From a bacterium (lineage in GTDB: Bacteria; 4484-113; JALSIF01): 7,107 nucleotides of DNA. This document shows, one piece after another, positions 1,061 to 5,413 of the stretch. Location of the stretch: positions 1-7,107 of the forward strand of contig JALSIF010000002.1 in NCBI GenBank assembly GCA_026981635.1, in the 5' to 3' direction. Numbering within the stretch: the stretch's first letter is position 1; each line of letters opens with the position of its first letter. The notes under the pieces are model-generated. The model searched no databases. It was not told the DNA's origin and was given only the letters and a program-made list of their open reading frames with translations. The position numbers were made by a program, and so were the translations under genes.

Positions 1061-1678
1061 CTATCCCTCCCCCTCCCTGCTCATCTGCTGGAGGGCATAG
1101 TCGGTAAAGATCACCTCCCAGAGGCGGTCGCTGAGGTAGCGCTCCACCCCGCGAAAGATGCCCACCAGGGTGCCGTCGGGCCGATAAAGCACGATCAGCG
1201 GTATGCCCAATTCCTCCAGCTTGTAAGTCTTTCCGGTCCTCACCCCTAGCGGGTCAAGCACGATGGGGAAGGAGAAGTTTCGCTCCTCCACATAGGGGAT
1301 GAGCTCCCTCTCCCCCAGGGCGTCAATGGCCACCCCGATGATGCGGGCGGGGATGCGCCGCTTCCCATCCAGCCTGCCCCGCTCAGGAATGGAGAGATAG
1401 AACTCCTCCACCGCAGGAAGCTCCAGCTCGGCCAGGGGGCAGGTGGAGGAGAAGAAGACCACCGCCGTGTAGTAGCCGCGGGCAAACTCGGAGAGGCGGA
1501 TCTTGCTGCGGGGCTCACCCAGGCGGGGAAGCTCAAAGTCGGCCTCCCCAACCGAGCTGAACTCATACCACTCCTGCTTCTCCGCCGGATAGTAGCGGGC
1601 AAGGGCGGGAGGGGCCGAGGTGGCAAGGGCGATCCCGCCAAGGAGGATTGCGCCAAGAAATCTTATGCCGGTTCCCAT
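1061..1678 (-). CDS. Exported redoxin (thioredoxin-fold) protein, single cysteine
   Basis: This is a 205-aa protein. I chose the ATG at 1678 over a longer reading frame (to 1783) because AAGGAAG lies just upstream and because the protein then opens with a signal peptide: MGTGIRFLGAILLGG..., cleavage likely after PPALA (residue 27). The mature part has the redoxin/TlpA order: ADFELPRLGEP..IRLSEF (about 46-65), the strand and active-site turn VVFFSSTCPLAELELP (73-88), then RIIGVAID (112-119), FSFPIVLDP (135-143) and the cis-proline turn LGIPLIVLYRPDGT (157-170). C80 is the only cysteine; the second cysteine of the TlpA CXXC motif is alanine. It could be a 1-Cys peroxiredoxin-like enzyme or a protein that needs a partner thiol. 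It probably acts outside the cytoplasmic membrane. It is first in a two-gene unit with the membrane-anchored SNase-like protein downstream. Confidence 0.85.
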   Translation of the reverse strand: MGTGIRFLGAILLGGIALATSAPPALARYYPAEKQEWYEFSSVGEADFELPRLGEPRSKIRLSEFARGYYTAVVFFSSTCPLAELELPAVEEFYLSIPERGRLDGKRRIPARIIGVAIDALGERELIPYVEERNFSFPIVLDPLGVRTGKTYKLEELGIPLIVLYRPDGTLVGIFRGVERYLSDRLWEVIFTDYALQQMSREGEG

Positions 1679-1687
1679 TTTGCTTCC

Positions 1688-1716
1688 TTTATACCTGACC
1701 TCACCTCGGTTGATAA
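1688..1716 (-). promoter_or_regulatory. Candidate sigma-70 type promoter for the redoxin gene
   Basis: On the minus strand, TTATCA (1716-1711) and TATAAA (1693-1688) are separated by exactly 17 nt, each matching the -35/-10 consensus at 4/6 and 5/6 positions. The ATG at 1678 lies only 9 nt past the -10 box, so a transcript from this promoter would carry a leader of about 2-3 nt and would not include AAGGAAG. Either the mRNA is almost leaderless, or AAGGAAG is the real ribosome-binding site and transcription starts further upstream. The box overlaps the candidate promoter of the divergent gene. Confidence 0.45.
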
Positions 1717-1719
1717 AGT
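1714..1719 (+). promoter_or_regulatory. Candidate -10 box (TANNNT) of a leaderless transcript for the PseG-like gene
   Basis: TAAAGT sits 7 nt before the GTG at 1727. No Shine-Dalgarno sequence is visible before that GTG or before the ATG at 1733. A TANNNT hexamer about 7 nt before the start codon is the known arrangement for leaderless mRNAs in several bacterial groups. I see no good -35 element. Six bases is weak evidence by itself. Confidence 0.3.
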
Positions 1720-1726
1720 TCGCTTT

Positions 1727-2761
1727 GTGCGGATGCTCATTATCACCCGGGGTGGAGGAGACTTTGCCACCGGCCACCTCCACCGCCAGCTATACCTCCT
1801 CCGCGAGCTTGAGACTGGCCTGGGGGAAAGGGATCTTTCCCCCCAGGCAGTAATCCTTGCCAACCCCCACCCAGTCTGCTACCGCTTCTTCACCGGGGCC
1901 TTCTCCACATCCCTGCCCTGCTCAATCCACTTTGCAGACACGCCGCAGAAGCTCCTTGACAGTACCGGTAGAAGCCGGTTTGACCTGGTCATTACTGACC
2001 TGCTGGAGCTTGATCCACCCCTGATGGATATGCTCTCTGACCTTCCTAGCCTGCCCAAGGTGATCTTTGACGATCCCAGGCCACTTCCCTTTCCTGCTCT
2101 CCGGATAAACAGCCTGGTCATCCCCCCTGAAATACCTTCCGGTGAGAGCTCCCGCTGGAAGGTGGGCAACCGCTACCTGGTGCTGAATCCTGTCCTAAGG
2201 GAGATTGAGCCTCCACCGGCGCAAGAGCGGCGGGGAGTGGTGGCAACCTTCGGGGGAAGCGACCCCCACCACCTGAGCGAGGCCCTGCTGGAGCTGGCAA
2301 GGAAGGAAGAAGAAAGCTTTGCCCCCCTCCTTCCCCTGACTCTGGTGGTGGGGTCAGGAAAGGTCCTAGAAGGTCTCCAGCCTCCCCCCCTGGTTGACCT
2401 GCTCATAAGCCCGCCCGACTTTCACCGCCGCCTGGCTGGGGCCAGCCTAGCCATAACCACCGGCGGGATAACTGCCTTTGAGGCCGCCTGCTTGGGGACT
2501 CCCTTGGTGGGCACCGCAAGGAGCGGGCATGAGCTGGCAAACCTCCGCCGCCTCTCCGGGGCGGCCATTGTCATAGACGCCACCTGCCGCCTTGACCGGC
2601 CTGTGGAGGTGTTGAGGGAGACCCTCCTAGCCGCCCTGGAACTGCTTCATGAGCCTGCAAGGCTCGCCCAGATGGGAAGCTGGGGAAGGAGCCAGGTTGA
2701 CCCCCTGGGAGCTAGGCGGGTCTGGCAGGAGATCCTAAGCTGGATGAAAGAGGGAGGCTAG
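1727..2761 (+). CDS. PseG/MurG-like (GT-B fold) sugar-nucleotide protein
   Basis: This 344-aa protein may start at GTG 1727 or at ATG 1733 (third codon); no ribosome-binding site decides between them. The N-terminal half opens with MLIITRGGG..ATGHLHR (residues 3-20), the glycine-rich loop and histidine cluster typical of PseG, SpsG and MurG-type proteins. The C-terminal half has VVATFGGSDPHHLSEAL (171-187), a hallmark of PseG (UDP-2,4-diacetamido-2,4,6-trideoxy-L-altrose hydrolase), and ITTGGITAFEAACLGTPLVG (243-262), the nucleotide-binding turn of family-28 glycosyltransferases. PseG acts in pseudaminic acid synthesis, but no other pse gene is in the window. It could equally be a transferase or hydrolase for another UDP-sugar. 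The gene is divergent from the redoxin gene and stands alone. Its TAG stop overlaps the stop of mnmA on the other strand. Confidence 0.78.
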   Translation: MRMLIITRGGGDFATGHLHRQLYLLRELETGLGERDLSPQAVILANPHPVCYRFFTGAFSTSLPCSIHFADTPQKLLDSTGRSRFDLVITDLLELDPPLMDMLSDLPSLPKVIFDDPRPLPFPALRINSLVIPPEIPSGESSRWKVGNRYLVLNPVLREIEPPPAQERRGVVATFGGSDPHHLSEALLELARKEEESFAPLLPLTLVVGSGKVLEGLQPPPLVDLLISPPDFHRRLAGASLAITTGGITAFEAACLGTPLVGTARSGHELANLRRLSGAAIVIDATCRLDRPVEVLRETLLAALELLHEPARLAQMGSWGRSQVDPLGARRVWQEILSWMKEGG

Positions 2762-3887: not shown

Positions 3888-5042
3888 CTAACCTACCCTG
3901 ATTCCTTGCCGCAGTGTCCTAACCACCCTAACCACCCGCTCTGCCGCCCACTCCACATCTTCCATGGTGTTAGTGAGCCCGAAGCTGAAGCGGACCGCAC
4001 TCCTAGCCCGCTCATCACCCACCCCGATTGCCCTGAGCACGTGGCTTACCTCCAGCGAGCCCGAGGTGCAGGCGCTTCCCGCACTGCAGGCCACCCCCTC
4101 AAGGTCAAGCCTCAGCACCAAGGTTTCGCTGGACAGGCCGGGAAAGCTCAGGTTGGAGATGCCCTCCGCCCGCCGTTGGGGATCGCCGTTTACCACCGCC
4201 CCCACCTCGGCGGCGAGCACCATCTCCTCAAAGCGGTCCCGCATCTCTCTGATGCGCTGGGCATAATCCCTGCGCTCCGCCAGTAGCATCTCCAGGGCCA
4301 TCGCCCCTCCCCCGATGGCGGGCAAGTTGTGGGTTCCCGCCCTCAGGTCAAACTCGTGGGCTCCACCCCGCACTACTCCCATCAGGGGGACCTCGCCCTT
4401 CCTAATCAGCACTCCCACCCCCTTGGGGCCATAGAACTTGTGGCAGGCGATAGTGATGAGGTCAGCGGGAAAGTCCCGCAGGTCAAACCCCGGATGGGCC
4501 ACCGCTTGAACGGCGTCGCAGTGGAAAGTAACCCCCCGCTCCCTTAGGGCCGCATAGATCTCCCCGATGGGCTGGATGGTGCCCAGCTCGTTGTTGACCG
4601 CCATTACCGAGACCAGCACGGTGTCCTCCCTCACCGCCGCCAAGACCCGCTCAGTCTCTGCCACCCCCGAAGGCCCCACCTCAACCAAGGTCACCTCCAT
4701 CCCCAGCCTCCGGGCCAGTTCAAGGTGGTGGAGGACCGAGTGGTGCTCAATGGTGAGGGAGACCAGGTGCCCCCTAAGTTCCCTGGCCAGGGCGGTCCCC
4801 AGGATGGCCAGGCCGTTGGCCTCGCTTCCGCAGGCGGTGAATATCACCCCTTGGGGGGGGACACCAAAGGCACGGGCAAAGGTATCCCGCGACCGCTCAA
4901 GCTCCGAGCGGGCAGCCTGCCCGGGGGTGTGGACGCTTTCCGGGTTGGCCGGGTAGCGCCAGGCCAGCTCCGCCATCCGCTCTACCACCTCCCGCCGGGG
5001 TGGCGTGGTGGCGGCGTGGTCCAGATAGATGGACTCAACCAT
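3888..5042 (-). CDS. iscS: Cysteine desulfurase (NifS/IscS family)
   Basis: This 384-aa PLP enzyme converts L-cysteine to alanine and holds the sulfur as an enzyme persulfide for transfer. The N-terminus IYLDHAATTPP (5-15) is diagnostic. Further motifs are TACGSEANGLAI (69-80), EHHSVLHHLE (99-108) with the PLP-stacking histidine, HCDAVQA (174-180) with the PLP-pyridine aspartate, and HKFYGPKGVG (201-210) with the PLP lysine K202. SAGSACTSGS (320-329) carries the catalytic C325 on a loop of the IscS/NifS (class I) type. The substrate-side motif is GGAHEFDLRAGT, a variant of the usual GGGQERGLRAGT. The start has AGAGGGGAG just upstream. The gene is 17 nt after the thioredoxin-like gene and 14 nt before mnmA. 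No Fe-S scaffold gene (iscU/nifU) adjoins it, so its likely main job is feeding MnmA; the gene symbol is therefore approximate (a YrvO-type role). Confidence 0.95.
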   Translation of the reverse strand: MVESIYLDHAATTPPRREVVERMAELAWRYPANPESVHTPGQAARSELERSRDTFARAFGVPPQGVIFTACGSEANGLAILGTALARELRGHLVSLTIEHHSVLHHLELARRLGMEVTLVEVGPSGVAETERVLAAVREDTVLVSVMAVNNELGTIQPIGEIYAALRERGVTFHCDAVQAVAHPGFDLRDFPADLITIACHKFYGPKGVGVLIRKGEVPLMGVVRGGAHEFDLRAGTHNLPAIGGGAMALEMLLAERRDYAQRIREMRDRFEEMVLAAEVGAVVNGDPQRRAEGISNLSFPGLSSETLVLRLDLEGVACSAGSACTSGSLEVSHVLRAIGVGDERARSAVRFSFGLTNTMEDVEWAAERVVRVVRTLRQGIRVG

Positions 5043-5059
5043 GGCTCCCCTCTACCCCG

Positions 5060-5413
5060 CTAGGCTTTTTCCGCCTGTGGCCCTATCTCCAGGAGCTGAT
5101 TAACCTTCTCCCGCAGATAGTCCTCACTATGGACTCCGGTGGTCCTGCCCACTCGCCTGCCTGCCCGATAGAAGAGCAGGGTAGGCACAGTAAGCACCCC
5201 CAGGCGGTAGGCCGAAGTGGGAAACTCGTCAACATTGATCTCCAGGAACTCCACCAGCCCCTCAAACTCCTCCCGGAGCTGGCGTACGATGGGCTGGAGA
5301 TACTTGCTGGGCGCCGACCAGGGGGAGGTAAAGACCACGATTACCGGCCCCTCGTGGTGCTGGAGGAAGCTCTCCAGCGCCCCGTCCACCAGCTCAGCCT
5401 GGGAGATGGCCAT
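5060..5413 (-). CDS. Thioredoxin-fold protein lacking both active-site cysteines
   Basis: This 117-aa protein has the complete thioredoxin length and layout: VIVVFTSPWSAPSKYLQPIV (24-43), VEFLEINVDEFPTSAYRLGV (54-73), cis-proline turn TVPTLLFYRAGR (75-86) and a C-terminal amphipathic helix. The active site reads WSAPSK (32-37) where thioredoxins have WCGPCK. Both cysteines are serine, encoded by TCG and AGC, and the whole protein has no cysteine, so it cannot carry out thiol-disulfide exchange. It may serve as a chaperone-like partner or scaffold. I chose the ATG at 5413 because it gives standard thioredoxin length; an in-frame ATG at 5443 would add ten residues. Neither has a clear ribosome-binding site. 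The next gene, the cysteine desulfurase, begins 17 nt after its stop, with mnmA behind, which suggests a link to sulfur transfer. Confidence 0.9.
   Translation of the reverse strand: MAISQAELVDGALESFLQHHEGPVIVVFTSPWSAPSKYLQPIVRQLREEFEGLVEFLEINVDEFPTSAYRLGVLTVPTLLFYRAGRRVGRTTGVHSEDYLREKVNQLLEIGPQAEKA

What the first reader, a model, noticed from the sequence alone, without database searches (positions are those of the whole stretch)
5060..5413. Cysteine-free thioredoxin in an operon with cysteine desulfurase and MnmA
The fold, the tryptophan, the lysine after the motif and the cis-proline are kept, yet both catalytic cysteines are serine (TCG and AGC codons) and no other cysteine exists. TGC to TCG needs two base changes, so a sequencing error is unlikely. 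A redox-dead thioredoxin held beside a persulfide-transfer pair suggests a structural role, such as docking the desulfurase to MnmA or guarding the persulfide.
Basis: partly seen in the sequence, partly recalled or inferred. Interest (0 to 1): 0.62.

Follow-up and report, generated by a model that had tools for sequence, protein, structure and literature searches.

The report
Cysteine-free thioredoxin beside cysteine desulfurase
A small thioredoxin-like protein that has lost both of its chemically active cysteines is kept by selection in seven of the ten sampled genomes of one little-known group of bacteria, and in two branches of that group its gene sits tightly in front of a sulfur-releasing enzyme, so it probably works as a binding partner and not as a redox enzyme.

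Summary
Confirmed and extended. Window 5060-5413 (-) encodes a 117-aa thioredoxin (Pfam PF00085, E 8e-16; AlphaFold2 pLDDT 84.6, top PDB matches all ordinary Trx) with SAPS in place of CXXC and no cysteine. It is not a sequencing error or a pseudogene. Seven of the ten genomes held for the phylum (MAGs labelled UBP7) carry such a paralogue (SAPS, SKPS, SKPA, SRPA), beside an orthologous WCPPC Trx. Two more (family f3) carry CSAC and CRPS versions that lack the same buried Asp26. dN/dS is 0.17 and 0.025. In 385 genomes sampled, the best hits outside the phylum are ordinary CXXC Trx.

The desulfurase link is real but partial: trx directly precedes nifS in the window (17 bp) and in two genomes of another family (ATGA overlap). 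The desulfurases are of two different lineages (AU p = 0.014), so the pairing outlived or repeated a desulfurase change. MnmA is linked only in the window, so 'docking NifS to MnmA' is not supported. In family f2 the protein persists with no nifS nearby.

Best reading: a non-catalytic Trx-fold adaptor or chaperone using the retained groove; in f1 and f4 its partner is probably the desulfurase. New variant of a known kind; interaction untested.

The parts
5060..5413 (-). Cysteine-free thioredoxin paralogue (117 aa)
   Evidence: AlphaFold2 pLDDT 84.6, pTM 0.78; PDB fold matches are classical Trx
5306..5317 (-). S33-A34-P35-S36 in place of CXXC (codons TCG GCG CCC AGC)
   Evidence: aligned to CGPC of E. 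coli Trx
5333..5335 (-). Val27 in place of the buried catalytic Asp26 of E. coli Trx
   Evidence: V/T/A in all Cys-free members, F in f3, D in all CPPC paralogues and in the outgroups
5183..5185 (-). Retained cis-Pro77 of the binding groove
   Evidence: invariant
5043..5059 (-). 17-bp gap between trx and nifS, with a Shine-Dalgarno-like GAGGGGAG
3888..5042 (-). NifS/IscS-type (class I) cysteine desulfurase, active-site loop with catalytic Cys intact (ACSAGSACTSGS)
   Evidence: TIGR03402 E 1.7e-105; Aminotran_5; loop
2758..3873 (-). MnmA, tRNA 2-thiouridine synthase, PCIACN and DICF cysteines present; 14-bp gap after nifS; next to nifS only in this genome of the class
   Evidence: NF001138 378 bits, cut-off 284

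Best explanation
A Trx-fold protein that has given up thiol chemistry and works as a non-covalent binding protein (adaptor or small chaperone) through the retained thioredoxin client groove. Shown: loss of both catalytic cysteines and the buried Asp26, retention of the fold and of the groove backbone (motif Pro, cis-Pro-Thr, Gly92), purifying selection, no member seen outside one phylum, a separate canonical Trx in the same genomes. Inferred: in families f1 (window) and f4 its main client is the class I cysteine desulfurase encoded directly downstream. There it would hold or cover the desulfurase near its persulfide loop, or aid its folding, without reducing the persulfide as a canonical thioredoxin would.
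For: Seven of ten genomes of the class have it, with SXP[SA]. Every genome also has an orthologous WCPPC Trx (tree), so redox duty is covered. dN/dS 0.17 (G007/G008) and 0.025 (G003/G006), the latter below that of the CPPC Trx and of nifS for the same pair, 0.081 and 0.053. The seven form one clade (SH-aLRT/UFBoot 79/90; 84/82 with the active site masked), and grouping the window protein with its own genome's CPPC Trx is rejected (AU p 0.005). Groove positions are more conserved than random columns (0.61 against 0.37, permutation p 0.008). Family-specific residues lie next to the groove: Leu73 and Arg89 in 7/7, against 0/10 in the CPPC paralogues. trx-nifS pairing: 17-bp gap in f1, ATGA overlap in both f4 genomes, with desulfurases that do not group as orthologues (AU p 0.014 and 0.0008). 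Precedent: Salmonella TrxA without its cysteines still binds nearly all tested partners (PMC9584953); canonical Trx reduces SufU persulfide in B. subtilis (review PMC8300815).
Against: No interaction has been shown. In f2 (four genomes) no nifS is adjacent, so the desulfurase is not the universal partner. Only three genomes in two families carry the pair, and the two f4 genomes are one genus. Groove conservation is also seen in the CPPC paralogues (0.86 against 0.55), so part of it is fold constraint. The f4 proteins have lost the groove Trp31. The G000 nifS branch is long, which weakens the non-orthology result.
Confidence: 0.5

Rival explanations
1. A general holdase or chaperone of the phylum, like the redox-inactive Trx domain of E. 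coli CnoX, with no special tie to sulfur transfer; the nifS neighbourhood in f1 and f4 reflects operon happenstance or shared regulation.
For: Found in f2 with changing neighbours. In f3 the CSAC/CRPS relative is followed by the same zinc-ribbon TPR gene in both genera, which recalls the Trx+TPR make-up of CnoX. E. coli CnoX has SXXC and no oxidoreductase activity (PMC6282202).
Against: It does not explain tight coupling to two different desulfurase lineages. No TPR domain here, and none of the extra cysteines that SXXC CnoX proteins use.
Confidence: 0.27
2. A persulfide guard or decoy: it occupies the site on NifS (or its acceptor) that canonical Trx would attack, so that persulfide sulfur goes to MnmA or IscU and is not released as sulfide.
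For: Same fold as the canonical Trx present in the cell; Ser invariant at the nucleophile position in 7/7; Trx reduces SufU persulfide in B. subtilis (Zheng 2019, cited in PMC8300815); the trx-nifS pair.
Against: No direct test. Family-specific groove changes (Leu73, Arg89) could as well mean a different client from canonical Trx. f2 members have no nearby desulfurase.
Confidence: 0.13
3. A decaying duplicate on the way to loss.
For: Graded cysteine loss across families: CSAC, CRPS, SXP[SA]; absent or missed in G009.
Against: dN/dS 0.025 to 0.17, intact frames in nine genomes, groove conserved, and G009 is only 77% complete.
Confidence: 0.05
4. Still catalytic in another way, with the invariant Ser33 as nucleophile or ligand.
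For: Ser at the nucleophile position in 7/7, by both codon classes (AGC in f4, TCN in f1 and f2), which suggests it was reached more than once or kept by selection.
Against: The buried Asp26 and Lys57 that tune the nucleophile are gone in all; Cys to Ser is the simplest near-isosteric loss; no Ser-dependent Trx reaction is known to me.
Confidence: 0.05

Closest known systems
Bacterial thioredoxin TrxA (PF00085)
   Same: Fold, length, cis-Pro, motif Pro, Trp (in f1 and f2); PDB matches at 25-35% identity
   Different: No CXXC, no Asp26, no Lys57; below the thioredoxin equivalog cut-offs
CnoX/YbbN chaperedoxin (E. coli, SXXC)
   Same: Trx domain with the nucleophile Cys replaced by Ser and no oxidoreductase activity (PMC6282202)
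   Different: CnoX has a TPR domain and a further cysteine that forms mixed disulfides; here one domain and no cysteine
Redox-independent binding by TrxA (Salmonella TrxA with response regulators)
   Same: Trx surface used for binding without the cysteines (PMC9584953)
   Different: There a side function of an active Trx; here a dedicated Cys-free paralogue
HyaE/HupG family of hydrogenase maturation chaperones (Trx fold without CXXC; from memory, not tested)
   Same: Small Trx-fold protein thought to act as an assembly chaperone
   Different: No Pfam match to that family among hits; no hydrogenase context in the window
YrvO-MnmA pair (B. subtilis)
   Same: Class I desulfurase as sulfur source for 2-thiouridine (PMC8300815); nifS-mnmA gene pair
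   Different: I know of no thioredoxin that is part of that pair

Membership tests
Thioredoxin family (fold, PF00085) | Match above Pfam gathering score; Trx fold in model | tested here: met
   58.4 bits against 23.5; model and PDB search
Thioredoxin TrxA (redox-active equivalog) | WCXPC active site | tested here: not met
   WSAPS, zero cysteines
Thioredoxin TrxA (redox-active equivalog) | Buried Asp26 and Lys57 | tested here: not met
   Val and Glu
Thioredoxin TrxA (redox-active equivalog) | Curated NCBIfam cut-off | tested here: not met
   63.9 bits against 96.8
CnoX/YbbN | C-terminal TPR domain | tested here: not met
   117 aa, only the Trx domain
CnoX/YbbN (SXXC type) | Second conserved cysteine for mixed disulfides | tested here: not met
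   No cysteine in the window protein
CnoX/YbbN | Holdase activity | not testable with these tools
   Needs purified protein
Phylum-level Cys-free Trx paralogue (described here) | SXP[SA], no Asp26, Leu73, Arg89, one clade | tested here: met
Dedicated desulfurase accessory protein | Gene coupled to nifS wherever both occur | tested here: inconclusive
   Coupled in 3 of 7 genomes with the Cys-free protein (f1, f4). The f2 nifS-like genes are a distant lineage and not adjacent
Dedicated desulfurase accessory protein | Physical interaction with NifS | not testable with these tools
   No complex prediction available here

The most novel reading that the evidence does not exclude
A dedicated, redox-dead thioredoxin-fold accessory subunit of a bacterial cysteine desulfurase that binds the enzyme and steers or shields its persulfide, evolved by stepwise loss of a CXXC thioredoxin within one phylum.
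Probability: 0.25. Interest if true: 0.75.

Novelty: new variant of a known kind. Interest (0 to 1): 0.5.

Why it matters
It gives a natural series, CSAC to CRPS to SXP[SA], in which a thioredoxin paralogue loses its chemistry but keeps its fold and binding groove inside one phylum. That makes it possible to ask what thioredoxin does as a pure binding protein. If the desulfurase partner is confirmed, it would be a new kind of control over where persulfide sulfur goes.

Tried and rejected
Scan of viral contigs for the window protein: nothing. A1 was too divergent to make patterns for genome contigs; the tighter A2 worked and gave the named MAGs. Sequencing error or pseudogene: rejected by conservation and dN/dS. 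Window trx as a recent copy of the genome's own CPPC trx: rejected (AU p 0.005). Window trx grouped with the phylum's whole CPPC set: not rejected (AU p 0.15), so the exact origin is open. f3 CSAC/CRPS proteins as sisters of the Cys-free clade: compatible but not proven (AU p 0.62). A scaffold between NifS and MnmA: rejected as a general role because mnmA is not next to nifS elsewhere in the class. IscU/SufU-like genes lie on other contigs, so they give no operon clue. No sigma-70-like promoter found. Literature: no paper found on a Cys-free Trx tied to a desulfurase, within an open-access library only.

Full report
1. The observation. The reading frame at 5060-5413 (-) is a 117-residue thioredoxin by sequence (PF00085, E 7.6e-16; best solved relatives are ancestral and classical thioredoxins, best E 3e-20) and by fold (AlphaFold2 from five sequences, mean pLDDT 84.6, pTM 0.78; the Foldseek hits are classical thioredoxins, mostly at rmsd 1.2-1.8 A). 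The active site reads W-S-A-P-S-K, and there is no cysteine. It can be strengthened: the buried catalytic acid (E. coli Asp26) is Val and Lys57 is Glu.

2. It is a family, not an accident. The window lies in a genome whose phylum, as held here, has ten genomes in one class. Four of them were identified by name through their contigs: MAGs JAHEFU, JAGRNT ('UBP7 HKST-UBA03'), JAFGCY and JADZFO. All ten have a WCPPC thioredoxin that behaves as an orthologue set. Seven of the ten have in addition a thioredoxin with no active-site cysteine: G000 SAPS, G007 and G008 SKPS, G005, G003 and G006 SKPA, G001 SRPA. Five are wholly free of cysteine; the two f4 proteins keep one cysteine elsewhere. Two further genomes (family f3) have a second thioredoxin with CRPS (G004) or CSAC (G002) that also lacks Asp26 and Lys57. 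These two look like each other's orthologues, being followed by the same zinc-ribbon TPR gene. The tenth genome, G009, is 77% complete and shows only the WCPPC form.

3. Selection and descent. dN/dS is 0.174 for G007/G008 and 0.025 for G003/G006; for G003/G006 this is lower than for their WCPPC thioredoxin (0.081) and for nifS (0.053). The seven Cys-free proteins form one clade with moderate support, also with the active-site columns removed. Joining the window protein with its own genome's WCPPC thioredoxin is rejected (AU p 0.005). Whether the f3 proteins are the sister group is not resolved (AU p 0.62), though Arg89 and the loss of Asp26 are shared. Ser at the nucleophile position is coded by AGC in f4 and by TCN in f1 and f2. 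These are not one step apart, but AGC and TCC are each one step from TGC, so the change may have happened more than once (inference).

4. Range. A profile of the seven scores them at E 2e-44 or better in 385 genomes; the next hits, outside the phylum, are at 3e-27. Of the 23 such loci examined, 20 gave a readable motif and all were CXPC. The 22 best outside hits of the first search are likewise all CXPC. So the family was not seen outside this phylum in the sample; this is not a full census.

5. Gene neighbourhood. In the window the order is trx, 17 bp with a Shine-Dalgarno-like GAGGGGAG, nifS, 14 bp, mnmA. In G003 and G006 (another family) trx and nifS overlap by four bases (ATGA), the classical sign of translational coupling, and mnmA is on a different contig. 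The desulfurase of the window and that of f3/f4 are not orthologues in the tree (AU p 0.014 for grouping with f3 and f4, 0.0008 with f4 alone; the window branch is long). Either the pair formed twice or the desulfurase was exchanged while the pair stayed. Both would point to a working link (inference). Against a general link: in f2 there is no nifS nearby; the neighbour is an Mrp/NUBPL-type Fe-S carrier, tail to tail, in G005 and G008, and other genes in G001 and G007. Outside the phylum, 9 of 27 nifS loci have mnmA downstream and none of these has a trx in the 1.5 kb upstream; one genus (G082, G223) has a canonical CAPC trx upstream of nifS.

6. How it most likely works. Thiol chemistry is excluded by the absence of any cysteine in five members (established chemistry). 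What is kept is the groove in which thioredoxin binds its clients: motif Pro, cis-Pro-Thr, Gly92, mostly Trp31, with family-specific Leu73 and Arg89 beside it. Groove columns are more conserved than random ones (permutation p 0.008), but this is true of the WCPPC group too, so it is support and not proof. Non-redox binding by thioredoxin has been shown directly: Salmonella TrxA without its cysteines binds nearly all tested regulators (PMC9584953). The proposal is therefore an adaptor or chaperone whose client in f1 and f4 is the desulfurase. One specific form, a guard that keeps canonical thioredoxin from reducing the persulfide, fits the finding that the Trx system reduces SufU persulfide in B. 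subtilis (Zheng 2019, as reviewed in PMC8300815). No step of this has been tested experimentally.

7. Place among known things. It is a thioredoxin by fold but not a redox thioredoxin by its defining features. It resembles the redox-inactive Trx domain of E. coli CnoX in its Ser-for-Cys change (PMC6282202) but has neither the TPR domain nor a cysteine, so it is not a CnoX. Redox-dead Trx-fold proteins are a known kind; a phylum-wide single-domain Cys-free paralogue, with a graded series of cysteine loss and a tight desulfurase pairing in two lineages, was not found in the papers searched.

8. Verdict.

Noticed in passing
L041:7437-8717 and L072:16821-18067: In family f3 the CSAC/CRPS thioredoxin is followed by the same zinc-ribbon TPR gene in two genera, a Trx next to a TPR protein as in CnoX but in separate genes.
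   Followed up: partly
L047:1064-2594 and L065:9326-10767: In G008 and G005 the Cys-free trx is tail to tail with an Mrp/NUBPL-type Fe-S carrier gene.
   Followed up: partly
window 1064-1783 (-): AhpC/TSA-like redoxin with a CPLA motif: a single cysteine where a second would be expected.
   Followed up: no
L119 and L114: In one genus of another phylum a canonical CAPC thioredoxin lies upstream of nifS (about 0.3 kb in L119), without mnmA.
   Followed up: partly
L039:7092-11159: Three tandem HtrA-like protease genes upstream of the trx-nifS pair in G003; Hdr-like and NuoE/F-like genes lie downstream of nifS (named by eye).
   Followed up: no
window 1727-2761 (+): PseG-like protein (TIGR03590, well below cut-off) converging on mnmA with a 4-base overlap of the 3' ends.
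   Followed up: no
L070:7082-7339: G002 has a third, very divergent WCGPC thioredoxin on a long branch.
   Followed up: no
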